DNA from: an uncultured Bacteroidales bacterium
Lineage (GTDB): Bacteria; Bacteroidota; Bacteroidia; Bacteroidales; Paludibacteraceae
Reading direction: 5' to 3'
NCBI GenBank assembly: GCA_902798385.1
Contig: CADBWK010000005.1
Location: 50,775-114,774 of the forward strand
Length of the DNA stretch: 64,000 nt
The translations under genes were made by a program, and so were the position numbers. The notes under the pieces are model-generated. The model did not search any database, was not told the origin of the DNA, and saw only the letters and a program-made list of their open reading frames with translations. The stretch's first letter is position 1. Each line of letters opens with the position of its first letter. This document shows, in pieces, positions 4,030 to 63,157 of this stretch.

Positions 4030-5165
4030 ACAAGAAACATAGTTTGGCATTGTTGTTGGATCCGGAGAAAGCGAATCTGGACGCTCTTCCGATCTCGGAG
4101 TCCTGCCATCCCGACTATCTCTTTGTCGGCGGTTCCACCGGCGGTGACACAACGGACTTTGTGCGCCATCTAAAATCGCTAATCGCTAATCGAAAATCGA
4201 GAATCCCCATCATTCTCTTCCCTGGAAATTCGTCACAATTTACCTCGGAGGCGGATGGCATCTTGTTCCTCTCGTTGCTTTCAGGAAAGAACCCGGAATA
4301 CCTTGTGAATCAGCAGATTAAGTCAGCGCGGGCGATCCATGATTCGCAACTGGATTTCGTCCCAACGGCGTACATCCTCATCGACGGCGGCGTAGAGACC
4401 TCCACCATGCGCGTCACGGGTACACAACCCCTCGATCCTCACGACATCGACACGATCGTGGATACCTGTATCGCGGCAGAACTGATGGGAAAGAAAGCGA
4501 TCTATTTGGAGGCAGGGTCGGGAGCCATTCATCCTGTCTCGCCGGAGATCATCCAAGCCGTGCGCTCCCATACCTCCGTTACCCTCATTGTGGGTGGCGG
4601 AATCCGTACACCCGAGGCGATGAATGCCGCCTACAAGGCCGGCGCTGACATCGTGGTCATCGGCAATCATTTCGAAGAGCATCCCGAAGACTTGGAAAAA
4701 TTTACTACTGCTCCTAGTGTTCCTGGTTCTTCTCCCGATGACGAGAAATACATGTCTCTTGCCCTCGCCGAAGCCCGCAAAGCGCTCGCTGCCAACGAGA
4801 TCCCCATCGGTTGTGTCATCGTCTCGCAAAACCAAGTCATCGGGCGCGGGCATAACCTGACCGAGATGCTCGAAGACGTCACCGCTCACGCGGAGATGCA
4901 GGCTATCACGGCCGCCACCCAAACGCTCGGCGGTAAGTACCTGCCCGATGCCACGCTCTACGTCACGGTCGAACCCTGCCCGATGTGTGCGGGAGCTATC
5001 GGTTGGGCGCAGATCAACCGCATCGTCTATGGTACACCCGATCCTAAACGCGGTTACACCACCTACGCCCCGCGGGTCTTCCATCCCAAAGCAACCGTCA
5101 CGGCAGGTGTCCTCGAAGACGAATGCCGCGCCCTCATACAAGAATTTTTTAAATCCAAGCGATAA
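4020..5165 (+). CDS. GGGP synthase family protein fused to tRNA adenosine deaminase TadA
   Basis: 381 residues in two units. Residues 1 to about 232 are a geranylgeranylglyceryl phosphate synthase/PcrB-like TIM barrel (LLLDPEKAN, LFVGGSTGG, ILFPGNSSQF, GILFLSLLSGKNPEYLVNQQ, YLEAGSGA, VGGGIRTPE), an enzyme joining a polyprenyl group to glycerol-1-phosphate. Residues about 238-381 are TadA (zinc ligands H290, C320 and C323; catalytic E292; PCPMCAGA), which makes inosine at tRNA position 34. The junction is the low-complexity linker APSVPGSSPDDE written by a 9-bp repeat, and a 7-bp repeat inserts SLIANRKSR in the first domain. One open frame with no stop between the halves. TadA probably began near Met 245 as a separate gene. 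Confidence 0.88.
   Translation: MEINKKHSLALLLDPEKANLDALPISESCHPDYLFVGGSTGGDTTDFVRHLKSLIANRKSRIPIILFPGNSSQFTSEADGILFLSLLSGKNPEYLVNQQIKSARAIHDSQLDFVPTAYILIDGGVETSTMRVTGTQPLDPHDIDTIVDTCIAAELMGKKAIYLEAGSGAIHPVSPEIIQAVRSHTSVTLIVGGGIRTPEAMNAAYKAGADIVVIGNHFEEHPEDLEKFTTAPSVPGSSPDDEKYMSLALAEARKALAANEIPIGCVIVSQNQVIGRGHNLTEMLEDVTAHAEMQAITAATQTLGGKYLPDATLYVTVEPCPMCAGAIGWAQINRIVYGTPDPKRGYTTYAPRVFHPKATVTAGVLEDECRALIQEFFKSKR
4173..4207 (+). repeat. 7-bp short tandem repeat inside GGGP synthase domain
   Basis: Five units of 7 bp (AAATCGC, TAATCGC, TAATCGA, AAATCGA, GAATCCC) read in frame as part of LKSLIANRKSRIP, between a helix and the strand IILFPGN. This looks like an insertion into a surface loop. Confidence 0.8.
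4713..4735 (+). repeat. 9-bp short tandem repeat at the GGGPS-TadA junction
   Basis: CCTAGTGTT, CCTGGTTCT and a partial third unit, encoding PSVPGSSP exactly between the two fused domains. It resembles the 9-bp repeat in the dihydrouridine synthase at 7998-8033. Confidence 0.6.
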
Positions 5166-7064
5166 ATGCAAATCTCAAATCTTAAATCACTCATCACCAA
5201 TTACAAATACACCCCGGCGGTGCTCCGTTTGAGCTGCTTTGCCATCCTGGCTGCCGTCCTCGTGCTTATGTTCCCGCGTTACAACAACGCCTTCCGCTAT
5301 CATTACGAGATTGGTAAGCCCTGGGGCTATAACACCTTGACCGCCGATTTTGACTTCCCGATCTACAAGACGGAGGATCAGTTGGCAACGGAGCAGGCCC
5401 AACTGCTTTCCACCTTCGCACCTATCTTTAATTATATCCCGCGCGTGCAACGCGAGGTGAAGGTGGTGTCGCTGGAGACGATGGATTGGTTGCAGGCCGA
5501 GGGCTATACGCGTATCACCCTTCAGCAGAAAAAATACCCGCTTTCGGAGATATACACGCCTAAGTCCGCTTATGCCAAATACGGCTATGAGATCACGACG
5601 AACCTCGTCCTGGACACCGTACGAACGATGGACATGCGTGCCAAACTGCTGGCAACCCTCTCGCCCACACAAGGACTCGTCCAGAAAGGCGAGAAGATCA
5701 TCGAGAAGGGTGAGGTGGTGACTGAGCGCAATTATCAGGTCCTGCAGTCCCTCCGCCGCGCGTACGACGATGAGTCGCTGGGGAACAAACAGCGTACGCT
5801 CTCCATCCTCGGCGAGGCGATGTTGGTGACGCTTTTCCTCTGCCTGTTTGTGGTCTATCTATATGTCTTCCGCCGCTCTTACCTGCGCTCAACCTCCACG
5901 GTGTTGTTCTTCTGCCTGCAGATGTTTATCGTTATCGCCTTGGCTTGTCTGGCGCTGCGTTTCGGGCTATCAGTCTACCTCATCCCCTTCGCTTGGGTGC
6001 CTATCCTGACGCGTGTCTTCTTTGACTCCCGCACCGCCCTCTTCCTGCATTTCACAACCATCCTCATCACGTCGATTGTTGTGCCGGCGCCGGTAGAGTT
6101 CTTCTTCATCCAGATCGTGGTCGGCATGGTGGCTATCTCCTCGCTGGGTGACATGACGCGCCGCGCCCAACTCGTACAGACCGCCGCGTGGATACTCTTC
6201 GCGCAGGTCATCGCTTATACCGCGATCACTTTCGCCCAGACCGGCGCGTGGTCGTCTATCGATCCGTGGATGTACCTGTATTTCGCGATATGCGCACTGC
6301 TGACAATCGGATGCTACGGTCTGATCTATGGTTTCGAGAAACTCTTCCGTTTCATCTCGTCCATCACGCTGGTCGAACTCACAGATATCAACTCCGAACT
6401 GCTCCATACTCTTGCCGAACGTGCTCCGGGTACGTTCCAGCACTCGATGCAGGTGTCTAACCTCGCGGCGGAGGCTGCCAAGGCCATCGGTGCCAACGCC
6501 CTGCTCGTGCGAACGGGGGCGCTCTACCACGATATCGGTAAGATCACCGATCCGCTCTACTATGTAGAGAATCAGACTGGCGTGGAGAACCCGCTCCTCA
6601 AGATGGATCCGCGGGATGCCGCACAGGTGGTGATGGCGCATGTGACGGAAGGAGAGAAGATTGCCCGTCGCAATCACTTGCCCGAAGTGATCATCAATTT
6701 CATCACGACCCACCACGGCACGTCCCTCGTGCGTTATTTCTACAACACCTACTGCAACGCCCATCCGAAGGAGCAAGTCGATGAGTCGCTCTTCCGTTAT
6801 CCGGGTACGAAACCCAGCACGAAAGAGGGAGCTATCCTCATGATGGCCGATGCCATCGAGGCACGTTCGCGCAGCCTCGATAGCTTCACCGAAGAATCGA
6901 TTGCCAAGGCGGTTAATCAGATGATTGATGCCCAGATAGCCGACGGCCAGTACGCCGAGACACCGCTGAGTTTTAAGGATGTCGAGGACATCCGCCGCGT
7001 CTTCACCGCTCGCCTCATCGCCATGAACCATCATCGCATATCCTATCCATCGTTGAATCAATAA
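5166..7064 (+). CDS. PgpH-like 7TM-HD domain phosphodiesterase
   Basis: 632 residues. After a first transmembrane segment (LSCFAILAAVLVLMFP, about 22-37) comes an extracytoplasmic 7TMR-HDED domain (about 45-205), then six to seven transmembrane helices (about 215-405), then an HD domain with HSMQVSNLAAEAA, ALYHDIGK (H454/D455 region) and FITTHHGTSL. This is the architecture of PgpH, a membrane phosphodiesterase that hydrolyses cyclic di-AMP; the substrate here is inferred from the family. The ATG abuts the stop of the previous gene, and the first 15 codons are made of a 7-bp repeat. Confidence 0.85.
   Translation: MQISNLKSLITNYKYTPAVLRLSCFAILAAVLVLMFPRYNNAFRYHYEIGKPWGYNTLTADFDFPIYKTEDQLATEQAQLLSTFAPIFNYIPRVQREVKVVSLETMDWLQAEGYTRITLQQKKYPLSEIYTPKSAYAKYGYEITTNLVLDTVRTMDMRAKLLATLSPTQGLVQKGEKIIEKGEVVTERNYQVLQSLRRAYDDESLGNKQRTLSILGEAMLVTLFLCLFVVYLYVFRRSYLRSTSTVLFFCLQMFIVIALACLALRFGLSVYLIPFAWVPILTRVFFDSRTALFLHFTTILITSIVVPAPVEFFFIQIVVGMVAISSLGDMTRRAQLVQTAAWILFAQVIAYTAITFAQTGAWSSIDPWMYLYFAICALLTIGCYGLIYGFEKLFRFISSITLVELTDINSELLHTLAERAPGTFQHSMQVSNLAAEAAKAIGANALLVRTGALYHDIGKITDPLYYVENQTGVENPLLKMDPRDAAQVVMAHVTEGEKIARRNHLPEVIINFITTHHGTSLVRYFYNTYCNAHPKEQVDESLFRYPGTKPSTKEGAILMMADAIEARSRSLDSFTEESIAKAVNQMIDAQIADGQYAETPLSFKDVEDIRRVFTARLIAMNHHRISYPSLNQ
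5169..5210 (+). repeat. 7-bp short tandem repeat forming the N-terminus of the HD phosphodiesterase
   Basis: Six units: CAAATCT, CAAATCT, TAAATCA, CTCATCA, CCAATTA, CAAATAC. It immediately follows the start codon and encodes QISNLKSLITNYKY. The native N-terminus may have been replaced or extended by the repeat. Confidence 0.8.
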
Positions 7065-7084
7065 ATATAAAGTATTTTATAAAG

Positions 7085-7223: not shown

Positions 7224-7256
7224 TATTTTTATTATAATTTTTCTTTTTTTCTTTTA

Positions 7257-8270
7257 ATGAATAATAAATACCCATTATATTTAGCGCCGATGGAGGATGT
7301 CACCGATCCAGCCTTCCGCATGCTCTGCAAGCGTTATGGCGCGGATCGTGTCTATACGGAGTTCGTGAACGCCGACGCTCTTGTGCGCGACATCGCTTCC
7401 ACGACCCGTAAGCTCACCATCCATGACGAGGAACGACCGGTGGCGATACAGATCTACGGTCGTGAACCCGAGTCGATGGCAGAGGCCGCCCGCATCGTCG
7501 AGACTGCCAAACCTGACTTCATCGACATCAATTTCGGTTGTCCGGTCAAGAAAGTAGCAGGCAAAGGCGCCGGGGCAGGACTGCTTCGCGATGTGCCCAA
7601 GATGCTCGAGATCACCAAAGCCGTCGTCAACGCCGTGCAAACACCGGTTACCTGCAAAACCCGCCTCGGATGGGATGAGAACTCGCTCTACCTCGAGGAT
7701 GGAACGCCCTTCATCGTCGATCTGGCGGAGCGGCTCCAGGACTGCGGCATCCGGGAACTCGCCATTCACGGTCGAACCCGCTCGCAGATGTACCGCGGCG
7801 AAGCCGATTGGACGCTTATCGGCGAGGTGAAGAACAATCCGCGTATACACATACCCATTATAGGAAACGGAGATGTGTGCACTCCCGAGCGCGCGAAGGA
7901 GTGTTTCGATCGTTACGGCGTCGATGCGATCATGGTCGGCCGTGCCACCTTCGGTGCACCCTGGCTCTTCGCCGAGATGCGCGAACTCCTCGACGATCCT
8001 AGTTCTCCTAGTGCTCCTAGGATTCCTAGGCCGACTAGCTTCGAGGAAAAGGTCGCTGTCCTCAAAGAGCATGTCCTCGCCTCGATCGCTTGGTGCGGCA
8101 ACGACGAACGCAAAGGTATCGTCCATTCGCGGCGTCATTTTGCGGCTTCGCCGGTCTTCAAAGGTCTCGATAACTTCAAGCAAACCCGCATCGCCCTCCT
8201 CCGCGCCGACACCCTCGATGAAGTCTTCCGTATAATGGATGAAATAGTAGCCAAATGGTCAAACGAATAA
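7257..8270 (+). CDS. dusB: tRNA-dihydrouridine synthase (DusB-like)
   Basis: 337 residues, FMN-dependent TIM barrel of the Dus family, which reduces uridines in the tRNA D-loop. Seen: LAPMEDVTDPAFR (FMN-binding start), INFGCPVKKVAGKGAGAGLL with the catalytic Cys in GCP, CKTRLGWDE, ELAIHGRTRSQMYRGEADW, IIGNGDVCTPERA and VGRATFGAPW. A 9-bp repeat adds the linker SSPSAPRIPRP near residues 249-258, between the barrel and the C-terminal helical domain. It is preceded by copy 1 of the structured element and followed by copy 2. The symbol follows closest resemblance; the exact target uridine is not known. Confidence 0.92.
   Translation: MNNKYPLYLAPMEDVTDPAFRMLCKRYGADRVYTEFVNADALVRDIASTTRKLTIHDEERPVAIQIYGREPESMAEAARIVETAKPDFIDINFGCPVKKVAGKGAGAGLLRDVPKMLEITKAVVNAVQTPVTCKTRLGWDENSLYLEDGTPFIVDLAERLQDCGIRELAIHGRTRSQMYRGEADWTLIGEVKNNPRIHIPIIGNGDVCTPERAKECFDRYGVDAIMVGRATFGAPWLFAEMRELLDDPSSPSAPRIPRPTSFEEKVAVLKEHVLASIAWCGNDERKGIVHSRRHFAASPVFKGLDNFKQTRIALLRADTLDEVFRIMDEIVAKWSNE
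7998..8033 (+). repeat. 9-bp short tandem repeat in dus
   Basis: Four units: CCTAGTTCT, CCTAGTGCT, CCTAGGATT, CCTAGGCCG, in frame, giving a Pro/Ser-rich linker between the catalytic and helical domains. Confidence 0.75.
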
Positions 8271-8276
8271 AAAAGT

Positions 8277-8450: not shown

Positions 8451-8476
8451 TATTTATCTAATTTTATTTACTTATA

Positions 8477-9466
8477 ATGAGAAAATTCTTCGATTCCAAC
8501 GCGTTATGGTTGAGCATGCTCATCGGAGCGGTCTTTTACCCCTGGCTTCTCCCGTTAAAGCCCATCCTCCCTTGGCTCATTTTCTTCATGCTCTTCTTCA
8601 CCTTCTGCAAGGTCAACCCCCTCGATCTGCGTTTGCATAAATGGCATGGAGTCGTACTCGCCGCACAACTCATTTTCAGTCTCGCCACCTACCTCCTGAC
8701 CCTCTATCTCTCGGGCGATCCGGTCCTCGCGCAAGGCCTGCTGATGTGCTTCATCATGCCGACCGCCACCGCCGCACCGATCATCGCCGGTAAGATGGGT
8801 GGTTCGATACAAAACCTGACGACATTCACGCTCCTCTCTAACTTCGCCACGGCCATCATCGTACCCGCTACTTTCCCGCTCATCAACCCCGCCGCTGACA
8901 TGACTTTCTGGCCGGCCTTCCTGCTCATCCTATCCCGCATCGCTCCCCTTTTACTTGGTCCTTTTTTCAGCGCGTGGTTAGTCCGCATTATCTATAAATG
9001 GCGTACGAAAAATGAGTTCGTTTTGCCGGTCAAAATAGCGGTAGTCCCCTTCTATCTCTGGGTTGCCTCGATCACCGTGCTCTCTGCTACAGTCACACAA
9101 ACAGTTATTACCAATTACCAATCACAGATGACCAATATGCTAATTTTATTAGCATGCTCCTTCTTTGTCTGCCTGCTGCAGTTCGGTTTGGGTAAATGGA
9201 TTGGATATAAACTGCCGGCTCCGAGCAAAGGACGCGACTATCAGGACGTACTCATCAACCCCGCGGCGGCACCGAAAAACATGAACGAGGTCTCGTCCAT
9301 TACCGCCGGTCAGGCGTTCGGCCAAAAAAACACCTCCCTCGGTGTCTGGATGGCGCATACCTACCTCGATCCCCTCTCCGCCCTTGGGGCCGCGGCATAT
9401 ATCATCTGGCAGAACCTCTTCAACTCTGCCCAACTTTTCTTCGTCGCACATAAAAAACCAAAATAA
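8477..9466 (+). CDS. BASS-family (bile acid:sodium symporter-like) membrane transporter
   Basis: 329 residues, about nine or ten hydrophobic segments, no signal peptide. The pattern fits the bile acid/arsenite/riboflavin transporter-like superfamily: MLIGAVFYPWLLPLKPILPW, CFIMPTATAAPIIAGKMGG (the discontinuous-helix region) and the C-terminal SITAGQAFGQKNTSLGVWMA. Substrate unknown; in gut Bacteroidota such genes are usually annotated only as transporters. A 7-bp repeat falls in the loop near residues 211-222 (VITNYQSQMTNM). The gene is monocistronic as far as can be seen and is preceded by the structured element. Confidence 0.75.
   Translation: MRKFFDSNALWLSMLIGAVFYPWLLPLKPILPWLIFFMLFFTFCKVNPLDLRLHKWHGVVLAAQLIFSLATYLLTLYLSGDPVLAQGLLMCFIMPTATAAPIIAGKMGGSIQNLTTFTLLSNFATAIIVPATFPLINPAADMTFWPAFLLILSRIAPLLLGPFFSAWLVRIIYKWRTKNEFVLPVKIAVVPFYLWVASITVLSATVTQTVITNYQSQMTNMLILLACSFFVCLLQFGLGKWIGYKLPAPSKGRDYQDVLINPAAAPKNMNEVSSITAGQAFGQKNTSLGVWMAHTYLDPLSALGAAAYIIWQNLFNSAQLFFVAHKKPK
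9107..9141 (+). repeat. 7-bp short tandem repeat in the BASS transporter
   Basis: Units ATTACCA, ATTACCA, ATCACAG, ATGACCA, ATATGCT, in frame (TNYQSQMTNM), in a loop between two membrane segments. Confidence 0.75.
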
Positions 9467-9477
9467 TTGCAAATTTA

Positions 9478-9509
9478 TTTGCACAGGTCAAAAAAATGTT
9501 GTACCTTTG
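9478..9509 (+). promoter_or_regulatory. Bacteroidetes-type promoter
   Basis: TTTG 9478-9481, 20 nt, TACCTTTG 9502-9509. The -33 box sits in GCAAATTTATTTGC, a perfect small palindrome sharing its core with the long hairpin of the structured elements. Drives the 9607 gene. Confidence 0.75.
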
Positions 9510-11317: not shown

Positions 11318-11477
11318 GTTTCTTTAACATTAACAGTTGCGCTCTTCTGCGCAGGGATCTGTAGTAGGATATTAGTAGGTGATTAGTAGGTGATTAGTAG
11401 GTGATTAGTAGGTTATAAATGGATGCGGAAACACACCAGAAACACCACGCAAACACAAAATTTGACAAAAAATTTAC
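11318..11477. repeat. Intergenic stretch with 11-bp tandem repeat
   Basis: No gene seen. It holds three exact copies of GTGATTAGTAG (11379-11411), flanked on each side by a degenerate copy. The repeat is too short and lacks spacers, so it is not CRISPR. Confidence 0.8.
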
Positions 11478-24214: not shown

Positions 24215-24247
24215 TTCGTATATCATTCGTATATCGTTCGTATTTGA
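24215..24247. repeat. 11-bp tandem repeat
   Basis: TTCGTATATCA, TTCGTATATCG, TTCGTATTTGA between the small peptide gene and the esterase gene. Same unit length as the 11379-11411 repeat but a different sequence. Confidence 0.75.
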
Positions 24248-24280: not shown

Positions 24281-25093
24281 ATGCTTGTGAAAAAGATTCT
24301 GATTATAGCTCTGGCTTTGATGGCTTTGGTGGCATGTACACCGAAAAAGGAGCAAGCTTCAGCAAAGCCGCAAGTAGGTACGGTGGTTCTGGACACAATC
24401 AATAATGTGCCGTGCCGCGTGTACCTGCCGAATGGATATGAGGAAAGTGTAAAGTGTAAAGCGGAAAGTGTAAAGTATCCCGTCCTCTATCTGCATCATG
24501 GCATGTGGGGCAATGAGCACGACTGGACAGAGCAGGGACATCTGCTGCATTGGATGGACTCCCTGCTCCAGTTAGGTCAGGTACGCGAAATGGTGATCAT
24601 CATGCCGGATAACTGTCCGCATCGTGAGACGAGTGAGGAAGAGCGCGCCAATGCGATGTCGGGCGAATGGATCCGCCAGTTCCCGCAGTTTATGGCTGAG
24701 ACTGAACAGAAGTACAATGTCAGCTCCGATCCTTCGCTCCGCGCGATTGCCGGTCTCTCCATGGGAGGCTTCCATTCAATGCATGTGTCCCATTACCTCC
24801 ACGGACAATTTGCCTATGTGGGCTTGTTCTCTCCCGCTATCCGTCACCCGCAATCGGATCCGGCGTACGATAACTGGGAAGAGGAAGTACGACTGCAGAT
24901 GAAAGAGGCGCCGCTCTACTGGATCGCCATCGGCAACGAGGACTTCTTGTACGAACATGTGCAGGAGTACCGCCGTTGGTTGGAAGCCAACCATCTCGAG
25001 TACACCTATTATGAGAGTGCCGGCGGGCATGTGTGGCCGAATTGGGAGGATTATCTCTGCCGCTTCCTCAAACTACTCTTTAAGCGTCCTTAA
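24281..25093 (+). CDS. Lipoprotein esterase, alpha/beta hydrolase (esterase D / XynZ-type)
   Basis: 270 residues. Lipoprotein signal MLVKKILIIALALMALVACT with the lipobox Cys at 20. Alpha/beta hydrolase of the putative-esterase family: YPVLYLHHGMWGNEHDW (oxyanion-hole region), IMPDN, GLSMGGFHSM (nucleophile Ser), and GGHVWPNWEDYL (catalytic His). Relatives include feruloyl and acetyl esterases acting on plant glycans; the substrate cannot be read from sequence. A 7-bp repeat encodes EESVKCKAESVKYP between the first beta strands. It may belong with the preceding CBM protein operon. Confidence 0.82.
   Translation: MLVKKILIIALALMALVACTPKKEQASAKPQVGTVVLDTINNVPCRVYLPNGYEESVKCKAESVKYPVLYLHHGMWGNEHDWTEQGHLLHWMDSLLQLGQVREMVIIMPDNCPHRETSEEERANAMSGEWIRQFPQFMAETEQKYNVSSDPSLRAIAGLSMGGFHSMHVSHYLHGQFAYVGLFSPAIRHPQSDPAYDNWEEEVRLQMKEAPLYWIAIGNEDFLYEHVQEYRRWLEANHLEYTYYESAGGHVWPNWEDYLCRFLKLLFKRP
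24444..24478 (+). repeat. 7-bp short tandem repeat in the esterase
   Basis: AAAGTGT, AAAGTGT, AAAGCGG, AAAGTGT, AAAGTAT; in frame as SVKCKAESVKY, in a loop before the strand YPVLYLHHG. Confidence 0.8.
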
Positions 25094-28166: not shown

Positions 28167-28214
28167 CTTCAAGAACTAGGGTACTAGAGTAACTAAAAAC
28201 AAACAAATCTAATA

Positions 28215-34076: not shown

Positions 34077-34128
34077 GGGGGAATTGGTTTTCCCCCATTG
34101 CCCTATTAAAGTATAAAGTTTAGAGTTT
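34077..34128 (+). other. Intergenic hairpin and weak 7-bp repeat before GH16
   Basis: GGGGGAA / TTTTCCCCC (34077-34095) forms a small hairpin without a long T-run. After it, AAAGTAT, AAAGTTT, AGAGTTT (34108-34128) is a degenerate period-7 repeat ending 6 bp before the GH16 start. Confidence 0.5.
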
Positions 34129-42926: not shown

Positions 42927-44533
42927 GAAATAAGTTCTTTTTGTTCGCGCTCTGTGCGCTGACTGCCTGTACAACCAAAATCCCGTCGAGTCATGTATGG
43001 CTTACCTCCGAAGCCGGAGATCAATGTGCCGAGCAATCCGCCGTTGTTTTCCATAAAGGTACTGCTGCCGATGCGATCGTAGTGAACCCTGACGAACAGC
43101 GTCAGACCATTGACGGCTTTGGCGGTTCGCTGACCGAGTCCTCCGCCTTCGTGCTGGCATGTCTGCCAAAGGAGCAACGTCAGGCCATCCTCGAAGAACT
43201 GTATGGCGAGAACGGAGCGAACTTCACCGTAACCCGTACCCAGATCGGAGCGTCGGACTTCTCGGTGGAGGGTAAGTACTCGCTGGCTGAAGAAGAGGGC
43301 GATACGGCTTTGAACTCTTTCTCGCTTGACCGCGATAAAGAGGGTTTTGCCAAAGACAAATATCCGCAAGTGTTGGATGAACACTATGACCTCTATCATC
43401 TGATGCTCGATGTATGGAATATCAAGCAGGCGCAGGAAGACAAGACCTATCGCATCATGGCGAACACCTGGACCGCGCCGGCGTGGATGAAGGAGAACAA
43501 GAAATACTACGAGCGCGAGAACGGTTTCCATCGCGGCGGAGCCTTGTTGCCTGAGTACTATCAGACCTATGCCGACTACCTCGCCAAATACGTCGAAGCA
43601 TGGCGTGCCGAAGGCGTGGATATATGGGCGGTGACGCCGGTCAATGAACCGATGGGTAATGACGGCGGATGGGAGAGTATGGATTTCTGGCCGGCTGTCG
43701 AAGCGCAGTTCATCGGTCAGTACCTCGGTCCGACCTTCGAGAAACGCGGTTTAGGCGATGTGGCAATCTATGGCTTTGACCAAAATATCTTCGAGATGGA
43801 GCCTTATACGCAAGCTATTTATGGCGACGAGGCGGCGAAACGCTACACGACAGGTATGGCAGTGCATTGGTATGGCAGTACGATCGACTGTTTCCCCGAG
43901 ACACTGGATCGTGTCCATGCGGCAAATCCGGACAAGACTATCTTCCATTCGGAGGGATGTATCGATAACCTTGGATGTGACCCGTGGGACGGTGTGACCG
44001 ATCCGGAGGGATTCAAAGAGTGCTGCTGGTTCAATAACGATGCGTTCTGGTGGAATGAAGTAGCCACCGACTGGGCATACTCGACACGTTGGGCAGGAGA
44101 GACGCATCCGAAATATGCGGGTGTACATCGCTACGCGCGCTATATCATCGAGGGCATGAACCACTGGCTGACGGGTTTCTGCGATTGGAACATCGTGTTG
44201 GATTCTATCGGAGGACCGAATCACGTGAATAACTTCGCTGCGGCTCCGGTGATGGTGGACTACGCGAATGATATCATCTATTATACGCCGTATTACTACG
44301 TGCTCAAGCAGTTCAGCCGCTCCATGCGCCCGGGCGATCAGGTGATCAGCTGTCAGCCGTCAGCGATCAGCGATCAGATTTTTGTCTGCGCGACGAAGAA
44401 TGCGGAGGGACAGATTGCGGTGAATATCCTCAATACAGGCGAAGCGACCTCTTTCCCGTTGCAGATTGGCGAATACTGCGCGAACGTGGACATGCCTGCG
44501 AATAGTGTCAAAACAATCATCGTGAAACTATGA
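42923..44533 (+). CDS. GH30 glycoside hydrolase lipoprotein (probable beta-1,6-glucanase or beta-glucosidase)
   Basis: 536 residues. Lipoprotein signal MRNKFFLFALCALTACT (Cys 16). GH30 TIM barrel plus C-terminal side beta-sandwich: QTIDGFGGSLTESSAFVL, NFTVTRTQIGASDFS, WTAPAWMKENKKYYERE, AVTPVNEPMGND (acid/base E242), TIFHSEGCID (nucleophile E344). Subfamilies GH30_1/3 contain beta-1,6-glucanases and glucosylceramidases; a beta-1,6-glucanase would clear side chains of laminarin or fungal glucan. A 7-bp repeat encodes ISCQPSAISDQ in the C-terminal beta domain. 4-bp overlaps on both sides. Confidence 0.9.
   Translation: MRNKFFLFALCALTACTTKIPSSHVWLTSEAGDQCAEQSAVVFHKGTAADAIVVNPDEQRQTIDGFGGSLTESSAFVLACLPKEQRQAILEELYGENGANFTVTRTQIGASDFSVEGKYSLAEEEGDTALNSFSLDRDKEGFAKDKYPQVLDEHYDLYHLMLDVWNIKQAQEDKTYRIMANTWTAPAWMKENKKYYERENGFHRGGALLPEYYQTYADYLAKYVEAWRAEGVDIWAVTPVNEPMGNDGGWESMDFWPAVEAQFIGQYLGPTFEKRGLGDVAIYGFDQNIFEMEPYTQAIYGDEAAKRYTTGMAVHWYGSTIDCFPETLDRVHAANPDKTIFHSEGCIDNLGCDPWDGVTDPEGFKECCWFNNDAFWWNEVATDWAYSTRWAGETHPKYAGVHRYARYIIEGMNHWLTGFCDWNIVLDSIGGPNHVNNFAAAPVMVDYANDIIYYTPYYYVLKQFSRSMRPGDQVISCQPSAISDQIFVCATKNAEGQIAVNILNTGEATSFPLQIGEYCANVDMPANSVKTIIVKL
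44344..44378 (+). repeat. 7-bp short tandem repeat in GH30
   Basis: GATCAGC, TGTCAGC, CGTCAGC, GATCAGC, GATCAGA, in frame as ISCQPSAISDQI, in a loop of the side beta-domain. Confidence 0.8.
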
Positions 44534-48583: not shown

Positions 48584-48608
48584 CACAAAATGGCGCGACT
48601 GCGTCGCG

Positions 48609-48681
48609 GGGGTATTAGCTCAGTTGGTAGAGCGCAACGTTCGCAATGTTGAGGTCAGGGGTTCGACTCCCCTATGCTCCA
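48609..48681 (+). tRNA. tRNA-Ala(CGC)
   Basis: 73 nt; acceptor GGGGTAT / ATGCTCC, D-arm TAGCTCAGTTGGTAGAGC, anticodon loop TTCGCAA (anticodon CGC), T-arm AGGGGTTCGACTCCCCT. CCA not encoded. Only 4 nt separate its end from the ATG of the next gene. Confidence 0.9.
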
Positions 48682-48685
48682 CTTT

Positions 48686-50385: not shown

Positions 50386-50413
50386 TAATCTATAATCTAT
50401 AATCTATAATCTA
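50386..50413. repeat. 7-bp tandem repeat overlapping the endonuclease stop codon
   Basis: Four exact copies of TAATCTA; the TAG stop of the minus-strand endonuclease gene (50411-50413) lies in the last one. Confidence 0.9.
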
Positions 50414-51685
50414 TCGTAGATTAATATCTACGATAATCGGCTCATGATCGGCATACCGATGCATCGTCTTGTCCTTCATCTTATACGCCCCGTGCTGGTA
50501 GTACCAATCGGCATTGACGTGCCACGGTCGTACGCGCACGATCTGCGTCGCCATCGTCGGGTTCGCAAAACAGCGATCCAGATACCCCGCTTCACCCTTG
50601 AACACGTACGAATAGTCGTTCTCTCCGCCTAGCGGTAGCATATCCGCATACCCGGCACGAACGATCTTCTGGATCGGTCCTTCCTGCGTATAGCAGTTAT
50701 AATCTCCCAAGAGCAACACATCCTCATCCCCAAAGACCTCCACCGCCTTCGGCAGCATCGCCAACAGCGAATCGGTGTTGTCCATTCGTTTCAGATGCGT
50801 GTCGTAGTTACCGCGACCTGCCCGTTTGGACTTCAGGTGATTGACGCCGATGATCAGTTTCTCTCCGCTCGCTATCTCTTCAAAACCCACAGCGAACATG
50901 CGTCCGTAGTAATGACTCGTTGTGTCCTGATAAGCGGACAGCGGTTGCGCATACACGCGCACGCGTTCCGTATTGTAAATAAAACATCCGCCGATACGGT
51001 CCATGTTTTGCAGGGGCATCGCCACGTACGCATATTTCTTGCCGCTCTTATTCAGCGCCTTAATCAGCATCGTCGGCGCTTTGTCGCCCACCTGCATCTC
51101 GCAGCACGCGATGATATCCGCCTTCATCGCCCGCAAGGCCTTGACTAACTTGTCGGTCTTGAGTGCCTGCTGCTCAGGTGTCGTACGCTTGGTGGCGTAC
51201 CCGCCTAAGTCCGCGAAGTAATTCTCTATGTTTGCTCCTACGATGCGCAGTTCACCTTTCTTCGGTCCTTTCAATCGGTCGCACGGCATATGCTTCGTCG
51301 CGATCGGTTGACCCGTCAACAAGTGCCGCTCACTCGTCACGCGTGCCTGGAACACTTTCACGATATCCCCGCAACGTACCTTGTAATAACTGTTCCGGCA
51401 ATGCACCACGATACTCGCCGCGCGGTTGGCTGCTGCCCAAGCATAGTACGCCGTGCTGTCGCCGTCCGCCAGACCTACCGCCCGCTCTTCCGGACAGAAC
51501 AAGCGCTGAGGCGCCAAGACCAAGGAGTCATAGAAACTGCCGCATACCACGAGAGGGGTAGTGACCTGAACAACGTGATTCGTGTAAGCCGACCAATCGG
51601 CTTGAAGCGCATCTAACGAAACACGCTCCACCGCCGAAACGGAGAGCGTGTAAAGCGCTATGAGTAACAAAAAATTTTTTCTCAT
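50411..51685 (-). CDS. Secreted endonuclease/exonuclease/phosphatase family protein
   Basis: 424 residues from ATG 51685 (MRKNFLLLIALYTLSVSA, signal peptide, no lipobox). An N-terminal OB-like part (about 25-140) and an EEP catalytic domain (about 150-424): RIVGANIENYF, ADIIACCEMQVG (metal-binding Glu), GVNHLKSKR, LLLGDYNCYTQEGP and a final YADHEPIIVDI with the His/Asp pair. Similar two-part proteins are secreted nucleases or phosphodiesterases. No sorting tail. Located directly downstream of tRNA-fMet and likely co-transcribed with it. Confidence 0.85.
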   Translation of the reverse strand: MRKNFLLLIALYTLSVSAVERVSLDALQADWSAYTNHVVQVTTPLVVCGSFYDSLVLAPQRLFCPEERAVGLADGDSTAYYAWAAANRAASIVVHCRNSYYKVRCGDIVKVFQARVTSERHLLTGQPIATKHMPCDRLKGPKKGELRIVGANIENYFADLGGYATKRTTPEQQALKTDKLVKALRAMKADIIACCEMQVGDKAPTMLIKALNKSGKKYAYVAMPLQNMDRIGGCFIYNTERVRVYAQPLSAYQDTTSHYYGRMFAVGFEEIASGEKLIIGVNHLKSKRAGRGNYDTHLKRMDNTDSLLAMLPKAVEVFGDEDVLLLGDYNCYTQEGPIQKIVRAGYADMLPLGGENDYSYVFKGEAGYLDRCFANPTMATQIVRVRPWHVNADWYYQHGAYKMKDKTMHRYADHEPIIVDINLR

Positions 51686-51691
51686 ACCTTG

Positions 51692-51763
<72 letters not shown>

Positions 51764-51891: not shown

Positions 51892-52383
51892 ATGGCAAGA
51901 TTTATCGTAATGGCAGAAGAAGGTGAACGCGTTTTGCTGGATAAGGCCAAGGAAACTTTAGGGCTCGATCTGAGGGATGCACAGCTCATCTTCACGGGGG
52001 TAGGGGCGATCAATATCATCCGCTCCCTGCAGCATCTCGACCGCGACGCCGAACTTATCAATATCGGCTATGCCGGCAGTGCGAACTTCGACTTGGGTAC
52101 CTGGGTGGAGGTCACGGAGGTGCGCCTCAATCATCCCAACGTCACCTATCCCGAACCGGAACTGAAACTCTCGACTCTTGACTCTCGACTCTCGACTCTC
52201 AAGCAGGCTCCCTGCTACACCAACTGCGATTTCGTCCTCGCGTCCGACTACAAGGACTGCGTTTTTGATATGGAGTTGGCGTTCATCGCCGCGCTCGGTT
52301 TCAAGAACCTGCACAGCTTCAAATACGTGAGCGACAATCTCTCGCTCCATGCCTATCACGATCTAACTCACGGCGTAGAATGA
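51892..52383 (+). CDS. Nucleoside phosphorylase / MTA-SAH nucleosidase-like protein (short form)
   Basis: 163 residues, shorter than the roughly 230 of full MTA/SAH nucleosidases. Recognisable pieces: IFTGVGAINI, ELINIGYAGSANFDLGTWVE (the GxAG(S) phosphate/ribose loop) and FDMELAFIAALGFKNLHSFKYVSD, where DMEx(A) is the substrate-binding Met-Glu segment and VSD the conserved Ser-Asp. A 7-bp repeat writes STLDSRLSTLKQ in the middle. Might act on purine nucleosides; the reduced size leaves activity uncertain. Overlaps the methyltransferase gene by 4 bp. Confidence 0.7.
   Translation: MARFIVMAEEGERVLLDKAKETLGLDLRDAQLIFTGVGAINIIRSLQHLDRDAELINIGYAGSANFDLGTWVEVTEVRLNHPNVTYPEPELKLSTLDSRLSTLKQAPCYTNCDFVLASDYKDCVFDMELAFIAALGFKNLHSFKYVSDNLSLHAYHDLTHGVE
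52167..52201 (+). repeat. 7-bp short tandem repeat in the nucleosidase-like gene
   Basis: ACTCTCG, ACTCTTG, ACTCTCG, ACTCTCG, ACTCTCA, in frame as LSTLDSRLSTL, between conserved segments. Confidence 0.85.
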
Positions 52384-53636
52384 CCACGATCTATCTCAAA
52401 CCGCATAAGGAGGATTCCCTTCGTCGTTTCCATCCCTGGGTCTTCTCGGGCGCGATCGCCCGCGTGCTGCTTGATGCCGGTCATCCGGGCAATGCACCTG
52501 CCGAAGGCGAACTCGTCTCGGTCTATTCATCGATGGGGGAGGTCCTCGGTGTAGGGCATTGGCAGATAGGTTCTATCGCCGTGCGTATCTTGGCTTTTGG
52601 TGTCGAAACCCTGCCCGCGGATTTCTGGAACGAGCGCATCCGGGCGGCGTACCAAGTGCGCGAAGCGCTTGGTCTAACCCCAAATCACCAATCACCAATC
52701 ACCAATCACCAATATAATGATACCTTCCGGCTCATTCATGGCGAGGGCGATTTCCTGCCCGGACTCATCGTCGATGTCTATGCCGACACCGCGGTCGTTC
52801 AGGCGCACTCCATCGGTATGCACCTTTGCCGCAAAGAGATCGCCAAAGCCCTCATGGACGAGATACCGCAAGTGCAGAACGTCTATTATAAATCTGACGA
52901 CACCCTGCCTTTCAAAGCTAAGATTGACGGCGATAAGATCGGTTACTTGGCGATGACCGATTGTGAGAAGGCGGACGAGTTCTGGTCTACGGAAAACGGT
53001 CTGCAGTTCCGTATCGATTGGTTGCGGGGGCAGAAGACAGGTTTCTTTATCGACCAACGCGAGAACCGTGCCCTCGTAGAGCGCTATGCGGCCAACAAAG
53101 ATGTGCTCAATATGTTCTGCTATACCGGCGGGTTCTCCCTCTATGCCCTGCGTGGCGGAGCGAAGAGTGTCGATTCGGTCGATGTCAGTCAGAAAGCCAT
53201 CGATCTTGTCAATATCAACGTGGCGCGTAACTTCCCCAACGACCCGCGCCATCACGCCTATGCGGCCGACGCGTTCGATTTTCTGAGCGACAAAATCACC
53301 AATCACAAATCGCAAATCACAAATTATGATCTCATCATCCTCGATCCGCCGGCTTTTGCCAAACACCGCGATGCGGTAAAGAACGCCCTGCGCGGCTACC
53401 AGCGCATCAACGCCAAGGCCATCGAGATGATTCGTCCGGGAGGAATCCTGTTCACGTTCTCTTGTTCGCAGGCGGTAGATAAAGAGGCCTTCCGATTGGC
53501 AGTTTTCAGCGCCGCCGCACAGGTGGGACGTAAGGTGCGTATCCTGCACCAACTCCATCAACCCCAAGACCATCCGATCAATATTTACCACCCCGAAGGC
53601 GAATACCTCAAGGGATTAGTGCTATACGTAGAATGA
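52380..53636 (+). CDS. Class I SAM-dependent rRNA methyltransferase (RlmI-like)
   Basis: 418 residues. PUA-like N-terminus (LKPHKEDSLRRFHPWVFSGAI), the middle motif FRLIHGEGDFLPGLIVDVY, then a Rossmann methyltransferase: GFFIDQRENR, NMFCYTGGFSLYALRGGAKS (SAM site), VDVSQKAIDLVNIN, YDLIILDPPAFAKHRD (the DPPAF catalytic motif) and FTFSCSQAVD with a conserved Cys. This is the RlmI/RlmK-type 23S rRNA cytosine-C5 methyltransferase family. Two separate 7-bp repeats encode NHQSPITNHQ and ITNHKSQITN in loops. Coupled by 4-bp overlaps to the genes on both sides. Confidence 0.9.
   Translation: MTTIYLKPHKEDSLRRFHPWVFSGAIARVLLDAGHPGNAPAEGELVSVYSSMGEVLGVGHWQIGSIAVRILAFGVETLPADFWNERIRAAYQVREALGLTPNHQSPITNHQYNDTFRLIHGEGDFLPGLIVDVYADTAVVQAHSIGMHLCRKEIAKALMDEIPQVQNVYYKSDDTLPFKAKIDGDKIGYLAMTDCEKADEFWSTENGLQFRIDWLRGQKTGFFIDQRENRALVERYAANKDVLNMFCYTGGFSLYALRGGAKSVDSVDVSQKAIDLVNINVARNFPNDPRHHAYAADAFDFLSDKITNHKSQITNYDLIILDPPAFAKHRDAVKNALRGYQRINAKAIEMIRPGGILFTFSCSQAVDKEAFRLAVFSAAAQVGRKVRILHQLHQPQDHPINIYHPEGEYLKGLVLYVE
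52681..52715 (+). repeat. 7-bp short tandem repeat in rlmI-like gene (site 1)
   Basis: CAAATCA, CCAATCA, CCAATCA, CCAATCA, CCAATAT, in frame as NHQSPITNHQ just before the FRLIHGEGD motif. Confidence 0.9.
53293..53327 (+). repeat. 7-bp short tandem repeat in rlmI-like gene (site 2)
   Basis: AAATCAC, CAATCAC, AAATCGC, AAATCAC, AAATTAT, in frame as ITNHKSQITNY, just before the DLIILDPPAF strand. Confidence 0.85.
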
Positions 53637-54508
53637 TTTTAGTTTGTTTTGATACCGAGACCACCGGTCTCGACGTGCAGAAAGAGCATATCATCCAACT
53701 CTCGTTGGTGAAGTTCGACACCGACACATGGTCCATCCTCGACCAGCGCGATTGGTATATCCTCCCCAAAGGGGAGTTCACCATCCCTGCCGAGGCAGAG
53801 GCGGTGCATCATATCAGCAAAGAGTTTTTGTCGGAGCACGGCGTGAGTTTGCGGAGTATCTACGATGAGTTTGTGTCCTTCGTGGGTACGCACAATATGC
53901 TCTCCTACAACGGCAACGGCTATGACGCGCCGATCCTGCATTATAACTTGAAACGTTTGGGGCTGGATTTTGATTTCGAACATCGTACATGGTTCGATGC
54001 TTTACTGCTCGAGCGTATCCATACCGCCGGTCAACTCGATGAGAACGGAGAGAAACTGCATAACAACTTAACTTCTGCGTACACGCGTTATTACGGTCAT
54101 CCGTTCGAAGGAGCACACAACTCCTTGGATGATGTAATGGCGACTATTGAGGTATTCAAAGCCCAGATCGCCGCGCATGGTTGGGAATGGGCCAATCGCG
54201 ATGAGTTCGGATTTATCTGCTTCGATCGATGGTTGCAGAAGAAGGGCGAGTATTATTACCTGACGCAAGGTGCGCACAAAGGCGAATCGATTGAGTCGAT
54301 GGTGCGTATTGACCAGAGTTACTTGGAATGGATCGTAGATAAATGCCAATGGACGGACGACCAGACACGCGCGATCATCAATCCGTATATCGGTCGCTAT
54401 ACATCTCCCTTCGCTCCCGTAACCTGTAACCCCTCACCCCTAACCCCTTCGCGTGGTAAAAAACGCCCGAAAGGAACCATCACGGACGCCGATTTGTGCC
54501 TTTTTTAA
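53633..54508 (+). CDS. DnaQ-like DEDDh 3'-5' exonuclease
   Basis: 291 residues. Exo I motif FDTETTGLD (D7, E9), Exo II region SYNGNGYDAPILHYNL, Exo III with AHNSLDDVMATIEV (His and Asp of DEDDh). The C-terminal part (FDRWLQKKGEYYYLTQGAHK, YLEWIVDKCQWTDD) matches the extension of Bacteroidota DNA polymerase III epsilon-like exonucleases. Probably acts in DNA repair or RNA processing. A period-7 repeat (PSPLTPSRGK region) lies near the C-terminus. Last gene of its operon. Confidence 0.85.
   Translation: MILVCFDTETTGLDVQKEHIIQLSLVKFDTDTWSILDQRDWYILPKGEFTIPAEAEAVHHISKEFLSEHGVSLRSIYDEFVSFVGTHNMLSYNGNGYDAPILHYNLKRLGLDFDFEHRTWFDALLLERIHTAGQLDENGEKLHNNLTSAYTRYYGHPFEGAHNSLDDVMATIEVFKAQIAAHGWEWANRDEFGFICFDRWLQKKGEYYYLTQGAHKGESIESMVRIDQSYLEWIVDKCQWTDDQTRAIINPYIGRYTSPFAPVTCNPSPLTPSRGKKRPKGTITDADLCLF
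54427..54447 (+). repeat. 7-bp short tandem repeat near the exonuclease C-terminus
   Basis: TAACCCC, TCACCCC, TAACCCC, in frame as CNPSPLTP, in a disordered-looking C-terminal linker. Confidence 0.75.
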
Positions 54509-54713: not shown

Positions 54714-56147
54714 ATGGAAGAGATCATCAAGGACATAACCTCTCAGGAGTATAAATACGGCTTCACCACCGACGTGGAGACCGATATCGTGCCGGCTGGA
54801 CTGAACGAGGACATCGTTCGGCTCATCTCCGCCAAGAAGCACGAACCCGAATGGCTCCTGGACTTCCGTCTCAAGGCCTTCCGCAAATGGCAGACCATGT
54901 CCGTTCCCACCTGGGCGCACCTTGACATCCCCAAGATCGACTTCCAGGCTATCTCCTACTACGCAGCTCCCAAATCGAAAATCGAAAATCGAGAATCGGA
55001 AATCGATCCCGAGATCATGAAGACCTTTGACAAACTTGGTATCCCCTTGGAGGAGCGTGCCGCGTTGGCAGGTAACATGGCGGTCGATGCCGTGATGGAC
55101 TCCGTCTCCGTCAAGACCACCTTCCGCGAGACCCTCGCCGAGAAAGGAATCATCTTCTGCTCTATCTCCGAAGCCGTGCGGGAGCACCCGGACTTGGTGC
55201 GCAAGTACCTCGGTTCGGTCGTGCCCTCTTCCGATAATTTCTATGCGGCGCTTAACTCTGCCGTCTTCTCCGACGGTTCGTTCGTCTATGTGCCGAAAGG
55301 AGTTCGTTGCCCGATGGAACTGAGTACCTATTTCCGCATCAACGCCGGTAACACCGGTCAGTTCGAGCGCACGCTGCTCATTGCCGACGAGGGCGCTTAC
55401 CTCTCTTATCTCGAGGGCTGCACCGCTCCCATGCGCGATGAGAACCAGCTGCATGCAGCGATCGTGGAGATCGTCGTGCACAAGGACGCGGAGGTCAAGT
55501 ACTCCACCGTTCAGAACTGGTACCCGGGCGATAAAGACGGTAAGGGCGGTATCTTCAATTTCGTCACCAAACGCGGCATTACTTACGAGAACGCACGCCT
55601 CTCTTGGACGCAGGTCGAGACCGGCTCTGCCATCACATGGAAATACCCGTCCTGTATCCTGCGCGGCGATAACTCCTCCGCCGAGTTCTACTCCGTTGCT
55701 GTTACCAACAACCATCAGCAGGCGGATACCGGAACGAAGATGATTCATATCGGCCGTAACACGCGCTCGCGTATTATATCTAAAGGTATATCCGCCGGAT
55801 ACAGCCAGAATGCCTACCGCGGACTCGTCAAGATGGGTGTCCATGCAGAGAACGCACGAAACTACAGCCAGTGCGACAGCCTCCTCTTGGGCGATAAGTG
55901 CGGTGCCCATACCTTCCCCGACATGATCATCGCCAACCCTACGGCGACCGTCGAGCATGAGGCAACCACCTCCAAGATCAACGAGGACCAGTTGTTCTAT
56001 TGCCGTCAGCGCGGTATAGGCGTAGAAGACGCGGTGGGACTGATTGTGAACGGCTATGCCAAAGAGGTCATGGACAAACTCCCGATGGAGTTTGCCGTTG
56101 AAGCACAAAAACTCCTCCAAGTCTCCTTGGAGGGTTCTGTGGGATAA
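54714..56147 (+). CDS. sufB: Fe-S cluster assembly scaffold SufB
   Basis: 477 residues from ATG 54714 ([17 protein letters not shown]); a longer frame would run back through the tRNA and is rejected. SufB landmarks: [77 protein letters not shown], and [19 protein letters not shown]. It is the scaffold subunit of SufBCD for iron-sulfur cluster assembly. The 7-bp repeat at 54972-55006 replaces the usual linker before [15 protein letters not shown]. No sufC or sufD follows; they must lie elsewhere. Directly behind tRNA-Cys. Confidence 0.95.
54972..55006 (+). repeat. 7-bp short tandem repeat in sufB
   Basis: AAATCGA, AAATCGA, AAATCGA, GAATCGG, AAATCGA, in frame as [11 protein letters not shown] in the linker between AISYYAAP and DPEIMKTF. 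Confidence 0.9.
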
Positions 56148-61107: not shown

Positions 61108-61111
61108 AGCC

Positions 61112-63112: not shown

Positions 63113-63122
63113 AACTGAATTT

Positions 63123-63157
63123 CACATTTGAGATCTGAGATTTAAAATTTGTGATTT
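63123..63157. repeat. 7-bp tandem repeat downstream of the cohesin gene
   Basis: CACATTT, GAGATCT, GAGATTT, AAAATTT, GTGATTT; degenerate period-7 repeat in intergenic DNA. Confidence 0.65.

What the first reader, a model, noticed from the sequence alone, without database searches (positions are those of the whole stretch)
4173..63157. A family of about twenty short tandem repeats, mostly period 7, inserted in frame in conserved genes and between genes
Period-7 repeats of 3-6 units occur at 4173, 5169, 9107, 24444, 42819, 44344, 45345, 50386, 52167, 52681, 53293, 54427, 54972 and 63123, with weaker ones at 28174 and 34108. Period 8 (40753), 9 (4713, 7998) and 11 (11379, 24215) variants also exist. 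Unit sequences differ (CCAATCA, AAATCGA, ACTCTCG, AAAGTGT, GATCAGC, TAATCTA), so this is not one repeat spreading by copying; the unit length is what is conserved. Inside genes the insertions keep frame and write peptides such as NHQSPITNHQ in apparent surface loops. Heptanucleotide STRR repeats are known from filamentous cyanobacteria; this looks like an independent counterpart in Bacteroidota. What makes a 7-bp register is unknown.
Basis: partly seen in the sequence, partly recalled or inferred. Interest (0 to 1): 0.85.

Follow-up and report, generated by a model that had tools for sequence, protein, structure and literature searches.

The report
Swappable seven-base repeats inside bacterial genes
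A group of gut-type bacteria carries many tiny seven-base repeat runs, often inside ordinary genes, and related species can have different runs at the same spots while the reading frame is kept; the repeat class is known, but this in-gene turnover is unusual and its cause is unproven.

Summary
The window has 13 period-7 arrays at score 9 or more (20 shuffles: mean 0.5, max 2). In 460 kb of its genome period 7 stands at 187 per Mb, against 3.3 per Mb in 62 loci of other taxa. Two listed sites (45345, 28174) fail and 63123 is weak.

"Only the unit length is conserved" is too strong. Many units share an AAT(C) core every 7 bp: AATC-type is 34% of this genome's arrays against 5.6% of random heptamers.

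Orthologous sites turn over fast: 44 of 87 mapped array segments fall below 60% identity between relatives, against 14 of 485 control segments. Some sites hold different units at unchanged length. All 47 mapped in-gene comparisons differ by a multiple of three, zero included.

Best reading: recurrent slippage or template switching, anchored on short AAT matches seven bases apart and filtered in genes for reading frame. Copying between arrays is not shown. Reverse transcriptases do not track with the arrays.

It is a new variant of a known kind: heptanucleotide repeats are published, but my seven literature searches listed nothing on this in-gene, unit-swapping form.

The parts
4174..4205 (+). 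AATCGCT/AATCGAA array in ORF 4020-5165; the G129 orthologue has AATCAAA/AATCACA units at the same length
5169..5188 (+). short CAAATCT array (2.9 units) at the start of ORF 5166-7064
9107..9122 (+). short ATTACCA array (2.3 units) in ORF 8477-9466
24444..24476 (+). AAAGTGT array in ORF 24281-25093
34107..34128 (+). weak AAAGTNT array just upstream of ORF 34135-35412
40752..40785 (+). perfect period-8 CATTCACT array in the GH149 gene
42820..42850 (+). 31-nt AATCTCC/AATCACC array near the end of the GH149 phosphorylase gene; L033 and L035 carry CCCGTAA units and L034 TCAGCAT units at the same length; modelled as coil
44346..44377 (+). TCAGCGA/GATCAGC array in ORF 42923-44533
50386..50414 (+). 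AATCTAT array at the 3' end of the minus-strand ORF 50411-51715; G129 has AATTACC-type units at the site
52167..52200 (+). ACTCTCG array in ORF 51892-52383; same site and length but other units in G129 (AATCAAC), G176 (AATCAAA) and G175 (AATCTCC)
52683..52713 (+). 31-nt AATCACC array, an in-frame insertion of about 30 nt in an RlmI-like methyltransferase gene; shared with G129, absent in G176, G078, G175
53294..53324 (+). 31-nt AATCACC/AATCACA array in the same gene; found only in this genome and G129 among 20 aligned sequences
54419..54448 (+). GTAACCC/CCCCTAA array at the end of a DnaQ-like exonuclease gene
54972..55005 (+). AAATCGA array in sufB; G129 has no array at the site, G176 and G078 have AATCAAA-type units
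11362..11413 (+). period-11 array TAGTAGGTGAT, between ORFs
24215..24243 (+). period-11 array TTCGTATATCA, between ORFs
7997..8030 (+). period-9 TCCTAGTGC array in ORF 7257-8270

Best explanation
These are fast-evolving heptad arrays produced over and over by misaligned DNA synthesis. A growing strand re-anneals on a short A/T-rich match, most often AAT or AATC, seven bases away, either in the neighbouring unit (slippage) or in another array of the same register (template switch). It then copies one or more units and realigns. Slippage adds or removes whole units; register-keeping misalignment rewrites units without changing length. In genes, selection keeps only frame-preserving, stop-free outcomes, so coding arrays cluster near 31 nt (a 10-nt seed plus three units would give 31). 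Shown: the periodicity, the enriched AAT core, the high turnover at orthologous sites, and the frame filter. Partly shown: array ends falling on AAT. Inferred: the polymerase step, AAT as re-annealing anchor, and template switching between loci. I propose no benefit at the individual sites; they look like tolerated by-products that diversify protein loops.
For: Period 7 dominates: 86 arrays in 460 kb, against 2, 2 and 0 at periods 5, 6 and 10. AAT forms 84 seven-bp runs of four or more cores in 824 kb of G000, none in a Markov shuffle, and none at spacings 5, 6, 10, 12 and 13. In mismatch-free arrays with no further in-register AAT beyond, 12 of 19 end on AAT and 11 of 18 begin with it in G000 and G129 (p=0.002 and 0.004). 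Whole-unit differences occur in close pairs: 7 and 14 nt in L119/L135 (95.7% identical), 7 nt in L268/L273, 24 nt for a period-8 array in L040/L041. One +21 expansion over a 10-nt GGTTACAGGT seed was found (L215:1976). Adjacent spacers within AATC arrays are identical in 34% (G000) and 60% (G129), against 7% and 16% between arrays, so units arise partly by local copying. Frame filter: length difference a multiple of 3 in 47 of 47 coding comparisons, 15 of 27 gene-edge, 3 of 8 intergenic. AATC-type share is 42% in coding (51 of 122), 42% in intergenic (10 of 24) and 33% in gene-edge arrays (24 of 73), so the vocabulary is not set by the protein. Coding comparisons with a different unit keep length in 10 of 12; these are 7 distinct sites, 6 of unchanged length, one of the 6 being only another mix of the same two units.
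Against: Where G000 and G129 differ by presence or absence, the unit is intact in the empty site in only 4 of 34 cases (10 more match 6 of 7 bases); against random units the match is better in one direction (5.85 against 5.25, above all 200 draws) and not in the other (5.00 against 5.26). Local slippage alone predicts more seeds. Of 21 nonzero coding length differences only two are multiples of 7, both 21, though successive events could explain that. Template switching between loci is not proven: shared heterogeneous stretches of 20 nt or more are no commoner than after shuffling unit order (within-genome 49 against mean 38.8, max 56; between 41 against 31.6, max 54); only at 17 nt is there a small excess (within 88 against 68, max 90; between 83 against 59.5, max 81). 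The swapped-in unit is not clearly commoner in its own genome (10 against 10 exact; 18 against 8 at one mismatch, p=0.076). Why AAT rather than another A/T-rich triplet leads is unexplained. In an independent set the clean end test is not significant (ends 5 of 9, p=0.08; starts 3 of 8, p=0.41); the larger counts (24 of 44 ends, p=0.0003; at 21 nt or more 10 of 22, p=0.07) may include breaks inside imperfect arrays.
Confidence: 0.42

Rival explanations
1. Ordinary local slippage microsatellites only: chance seeds expand by 7-nt steps, mutate and decay; frame selection in genes does the rest. No exchange between loci and no special core.
For: Whole-unit length differences in close pairs. Units within an array far more alike than between arrays. 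Long shared stretches no commoner than after unit-order shuffling at 20 nt or more. A slippage proposal for heptanucleotide repeats is in print.
Against: Units are not random genomic heptamers: class collision 0.018 against 0.001, AATC-type 34% against 5.6%. No intact unit at 30 of 34 empty sites. Unit type differs at one site with unchanged length at about 5 clear distinct coding sites.
Confidence: 0.28
2. A dispersed mobile repeat family: whole arrays of about 31 nt are copied to new sites and into old arrays as cassettes by recombination or by a dedicated enzyme.
For: TAACC-type arrays share one outline: in 23 of 23 rows of G000 and G129 (orthologue pairs not removed) a T lies three bases beyond the last TAACC core. 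Long shared variant strings occur at unlinked loci, e.g. 27-28 nt of the 52167 array also in L158 and L213. Most empty sites lack the unit.
Against: Unit-order shuffling reproduces the number of long shared strings at 20 nt or more. No clear donor bias towards the own genome. No reverse-transcriptase link: RVT_1 in 5 of 18 array-rich and 7 of 21 array-poor genomes, none found in G000 or G129. Target-site duplications were not tested.
Confidence: 0.18
3. The arrays are binding sites for a protein that contacts AAT every 7 bp, and are selected for.
For: In AATC arrays the AAT positions deviate from the array's own consensus in 1-5% of cells, the other four in 8-13% (choosing AATC arrays may favour this).
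Against: Arrays sit mostly in or across genes (195 of 219, crude calls), are often not conserved in unit or presence between relatives, and 16 of the 178 genus genomes have no match to the AATC or CTAA pattern (my count).
Confidence: 0.06
4. Phase-variation loci: unit gains and losses switch genes on and off.
For: Seven is not a multiple of three, so a one-unit change would shift the frame; unit-number differences exist between species.
Against: All 47 mapped in-gene comparisons keep the frame, though between species only. Host genes named in the window include sufB, an RlmI-like methyltransferase and a GH149 phosphorylase.
Confidence: 0.04

Closest known systems
Heptanucleotide long simple sequence repeats (Mrazek et al. 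2007; not held, known here through PMC4679880 section 3 and passages of PMC4692102)
   Same: Seven is described as the most abundant unit length in most genomes of the 5-11 nt class; patchy species distribution; polymerase slippage proposed.
   Different: There, unit lengths that are multiples of three are described as the most likely to lie in coding regions; here the 7-nt class is mostly in or across genes, with an enriched AAT core and replacement at orthologous sites.
GGGNATC / GGGGA(C/T)T repeats of Xanthomonas and Nostoc (Rehm et al. 2015, PMC4692102: abstract, passages and section 14 seen)
   Same: Heptamer with variable positions, dispersed genome-wide, preference for four units; by rotation GGGAATC is also an AATCNNN unit (my own reading).
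   Different: [quoted passage not shown] here arrays are 32% GC, mostly in or across genes, and about half of the mapped segments are strongly changed.
TAACTGA repeats of marine Beggiatoaceae, Cyanobacteria and five Bacteroidetes (MacGregor 2015, PMC4679880: abstract, passages, sections 3 and 12 seen)
   Same: Heptamer arrays in many copies, reported also in Bacteroidetes including Paludibacter propionicigenes (two sets).
   Different: One heptamer, in the main genome studied mostly just upstream of start codons; here a vocabulary of related heptamers, mostly in or across genes.
STRR repeats of filamentous cyanobacteria (recalled; named only in search listings)
   Same: Heptanucleotide tandem repeats in several sequence classes.
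   Different: Recalled as mainly intergenic and cyanobacterial.
Rickettsia palindromic elements (recalled; search listing only)
   Same: Repeats that sit in frame inside protein-coding genes.
   Different: Longer, palindromic, alignable families.

Membership tests
Heptanucleotide simple sequence repeats (5-11 nt class) | Tandem units of 5-11 nt longer than chance predicts | tested here: met
Heptanucleotide simple sequence repeats (5-11 nt class) | Seven is the most abundant unit length | tested here: met
   460 kb of G000, 395 kb of G129; 8 further genomes, 62-100 kb each, periods 5-11
Heptanucleotide simple sequence repeats (5-11 nt class) | In-gene repeats favour unit lengths that are multiples of three | tested here: not met
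   periods 7, 8, 9, 11 only: coding against intergenic 139:33 at period 7, 28:11 at period 9
Quadruplex heptamers (GGGNATC type) | G-rich strand able to form quadruplexes | tested here: not met
   by composition only: arrays 32% GC, mean min(G,C) 0.34 per unit
Quadruplex heptamers (GGGNATC type) | Same repeat kept at most orthologous sites | tested here: not met
   44 of 87 mapped array segments below 60% identity
TAACTGA repeats | A single heptamer, near variants rarely repeated | tested here: not met
   many related units per genome
STRR of cyanobacteria | Heptanucleotide arrays, mainly intergenic (recalled) | tested here: not met
   24 of 219 arrays intergenic, 122 inside ORFs, 73 overlapping or near an ORF end (crude ORF calls)
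Rickettsia palindromic elements | In-frame location in ORFs (recalled) | tested here: met
Rickettsia palindromic elements | Palindromic element of 100 nt or more (recalled) | tested here: not met
   by length only: period-7 arrays have a median of 30 nt in G000 and G129; folding was not tested
Phase-variable contingency repeats | Unit-number changes that shift the reading frame | tested here: not met
   0 of 47 coding comparisons, between species only
Reverse-transcriptase-written repeats (DGR-like) | A reverse transcriptase in the genome | tested here: inconclusive
   RVT_1 in 5 of 18 array-rich and 7 of 21 array-poor genomes; none found in G000 or G129, which are 74-75% complete

The most novel reading that the evidence does not exclude
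Many Bacteroidales carry an as yet unknown, register-keeping array-writing process that repeatedly overwrites short tolerant stretches of genes with AAT-anchored heptads in a species-biased vocabulary. It would keep length and frame, and so act as a genome-wide loop-diversifying system distinct from slippage, diversity-generating retroelements and mobile elements.
Probability: 0.15. Interest if true: 0.85.

Novelty: new variant of a known kind. Interest (0 to 1): 0.55.

Why it matters
Heptanucleotide repeats are an old loose end: common, patchy and barely explained. Here one genus with 178 held genomes offers a natural experiment. The arrays are dense enough to count, many sit inside alignable genes, and they differ between relatives whose flanks are 85-98% identical. 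They show an enriched AAT core that a theory of the 7-bp register would have to explain. They also suggest that ordinary housekeeping proteins in these bacteria gain and exchange loop sequence much faster than the DNA around it changes, which matters for reading protein alignments and for assembling metagenomes across such sites.

Tried and rejected
Rejected or left open. (1) Array-level copying in order: the unit-order shuffle is not exceeded at 20 nt or more; at 17 nt a small excess remains. (2) Own-genome donors for swapped units: not significant. (3) Reverse transcriptase link: no association. (4) Mismatch-repair loss: a mutS1 match above the cut-off in 35 of 39 genomes; the four without are two array-rich and two array-poor. 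(5) A first impression that the string AACCCCTCACCC proved copying: I had searched for that very string, so I redid it without that condition (the first attempt had a wrong pattern). (6) G-quadruplexes as cause of the unit number: units are G-poor. (7) The 31-nt mode as a defined insert: it is seen in coding arrays (31 of 139) and not in intergenic ones (1 of 33), so frame selection is the simpler reading. (8) Strain-level polymorphism could not be tested: one genome per species is held.

Caveats. ORF calls are crude (ATG starts, 100 aa or more, greedy; 92% called coding), so coding, edge and intergenic labels are approximate. Mapping G000 to G129 and back counts many two-sided sites twice. 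Only arrays with both flanks alignable were mapped: 43 of 130 and 39 of 89; 87 of 276 asked, per ordered pair, so arrays of L033-L035 and L038 recur. In one search identity is taken over the longer segment, so a length difference lowers it, and in three of five sets the flanks of mapped arrays were 2-5 points less identical than those of controls. The within-against-between unit test did not exclude neighbouring or orthologous arrays. The 39 genomes were picked by me (18 rich, 21 with no match). One search failed in the script and was redone.
Full report
What was checked. A lag-autocorrelation scan and Tandem Repeats Finder were run on the window. Thirteen period-7 arrays reach score 9; 20 Markov-3 shuffles give a mean of 0.5 and a maximum of 2. 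Thirteen of the sixteen listed period-7 positions are these arrays; 63123 is weak, 45345 and 28174 are not there. The window lies in a 1.92-Mb, 44-contig, 74%-complete genome, G000. In 460 kb of it (the window plus 20 stretches) period 7 occurs at 187 per Mb, with 4 per Mb at periods 5 and 6, none at 10, and smaller peaks at 8, 9 and 11; one Markov shuffle of the same sequence gives none at periods 5 to 11. 62 loci of other taxa, fetched by homology to the GH149 gene, give 3.3 per Mb at period 7.

Where it comes from. The eight nearest GH149 relatives (67-80% identity over the best segment) are MAGs titled Bacteroidales or Paludibacteraceae, several with red deer, reindeer or goat in their names. 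In each, period 7 is the leading class of periods 5 to 11, at 50 to 273 per Mb (62 to 824 kb each).

The unit is not arbitrary. The pattern (AATCNNN)3AATC gives 81 overlapping matches in G000 and 2 for the same pattern read backwards. In the family 202 of 358 genomes have a match, with strong differences between species: G068 141 against 5 for the control, G079 none against 47, G357 12 against 997. In an even draw from the order 159 of 393 genomes have one, for example G652 354 against 1, while G696 has none against 222. So at least two vocabularies, AATC and CTAA, recur in a patchy way. Among G000 arrays AATC-type units are 34%, against a mean of 5.6% (maximum 11.5%) for random genomic heptamers, and the chance that two arrays share a unit class is 0.018 against 0.001. 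Over the ten genomes, units of one genome are more alike than units of different genomes (share of pairs with at most one difference 0.120 against 0.091; excess 0.029, permutations at most 0.020 in 200). Among the 60 trinucleotides that are not homopolymers, AAT/ATT ranks first as a 7-bp-spaced core with three different spacers in G000, G129 and seven further species, with 84, 62 and 47 runs of four or more in all and none in the shuffles (only the first 12 cores were printed). In AATC arrays the AAT positions deviate from the array's own consensus in 1-5% of cells, the other four positions in 8-13%; choosing AATC arrays may favour this.

Ends and length. Scored AATC arrays start at or one base before AATC in 57 of 88 and end at AAT or AATC in 60 of 88, but spacer variation can create such ends. 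With mismatch-free arrays that have no further in-register AAT beyond, ends fall on AAT in 12 of 19 (p=0.002) and starts in 11 of 18 (p=0.004) for G000 and G129; in an independent set 5 of 9 (p=0.08) and 3 of 8 (p=0.41). So defined ends are likely here and not established elsewhere. Coding arrays have a mode of 31 nt (31 of 139), intergenic ones do not (1 of 33); 99 arrays at gene edges are left out of this comparison. Three extra units (21 nt) is the smallest frame-keeping whole-unit gain, and a 10-nt seed plus 21 gives 31; this is my inference. Period-8 and period-11 arrays are mostly intergenic (intergenic to coding 18:4 and 33:7), period 7 and 9 mostly coding (33:139 and 11:28). Why period 7, but not 8 or 11, enters genes is unexplained.

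Turnover at orthologous sites. At window 52167, 19 relatives aligned over the same stretch show ACTCTCG (this genome and G078), AATCAAC (G129), AATCAAA (G176), AATCTCC (G175), TCAGTAT (G188), other or degenerate repeats, or no clear array; G129, G176 and G175 have exactly the length seen here. At the GH149 site 42820, L033 and L035 have CCCGTAA units and L034 has TCAGCAT units at the same length, L036 has the same length without an array, L037 and L038 are longer. At 52683 the array is an insertion of about 30 nt shared with G129 and absent from G176, G078 and G175; some other species have other inserts there. 53294 is confined to this genome and G129 among 20 sequences. In close pairs (L034/L035, L268/L273, L033/L034, L117/L123) some segments differ wholly at equal length with flanks of 85-98%, while other arrays are identical or differ by whole units. 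With controls: 44 of 87 mapped array segments (50.6%) fall below 60% identity, against 14 of 485 random segments of the same lengths (2.9%). Between G000 and G129, of 82 mapped comparisons (43 and 39) 48 have arrays in both genomes, many of these sites counted from both sides, and 34 do not. Coding comparisons with a different unit keep length in 10 of 12, which are 7 distinct sites; 6 of these keep length, and one of the six is only another mix of the same two units. Coding comparisons facing no array differ in length in 16 of 19. The length difference is a multiple of three in 47 of 47 coding, 15 of 27 gene-edge and 3 of 8 intergenic comparisons.

Proteins. ORF 52380-53636 matches E. coli YccW (3c0k, E=4e-62). 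Residues 102-112, written by array 52683, fall in an insertion absent from 3c0k and 2as0; the second array lies in a variable stretch just before the conserved DPP motif, four residues longer than in 3c0k. In the GH149 model (mean pLDDT 73, 18 sequences) the array residues 928-938 lie between strand 922-927 and helix 942-950, in coil apart from 938, with a local confidence dip (72 between 85 and 91). Solvent exposure was not computed.

Mechanism. Local copying is real: neighbouring spacers in AATC arrays are identical in 34% (G000) and 60% (G129) of cases against 7% and 16% between arrays, and whole-unit differences are seen in close pairs. But plain slippage does not predict the shared core, the unit types that differ at unchanged length, or the lack of an intact unit at 30 of 34 empty sites, 10 of which do match 6 of 7 bases. 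Exchange between arrays would explain these, yet the two tests for it were not significant apart from a small excess at 17 nt. I therefore commit to misaligned synthesis anchored on AAT matches seven bases apart, mainly within an array and possibly between arrays, with frame selection in genes, at 0.42. No reverse transcriptase link and no mismatch-repair link was found.

Known work. Heptanucleotide repeats as the commonest 5-11 nt class, with a slippage proposal, are described for Mrazek 2007 in PMC4679880 (section 3) and in passages of PMC4692102; the original is not held. [quoted passage not shown] PMC4679880 describes TAACTGA repeats, also in five Bacteroidetes. Searches listed no paper on in-gene heptad arrays in Bacteroidales; beyond the two papers named I saw listings only, and most subscription journals are missing from that library. 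STRR and Rickettsia palindromic elements are compared from memory.

Verdict. A real and strong feature of this genus and patchily of its order; a new variant of a known repeat class. The surprising part is in-gene turnover of heptad units with length and frame kept and an enriched AAT core. The mechanism remains open.

Noticed in passing
L129 and L124 at the site of window 52167; L035 and L268 opposite arrays of L034 and L273: A palindromic, C/G-rich element (CTCCCTTCCCTT..AAGGGAGGG type, partial in L124) occupies some of the sites that hold heptad or other arrays in relatives.
   Followed up: no
G000 and G129 stretches; window 11362-11413, 24215-24243: Period-8 and period-11 arrays are mostly intergenic, whereas period-7 and period-9 arrays are mostly coding; period 10 is practically absent.
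   Followed up: partly
G226 stretches L288-L292; G357, G209: Some related genera have much longer or more numerous heptad arrays (G226 up to 279 nt; G357 997 matches to the reversed pattern).
   Followed up: no
TAACC-type arrays in G000 and G129 stretches: A T lies three bases after the last TAACC core in 23 of 23 rows (orthologue pairs not removed), as if the right end were specific.
   Followed up: partly
window 48232-48584: tmRNA gene with tag peptide GNYEYALAA, closely followed by a tRNA-Ala gene at 48609-48682.
   Followed up: no
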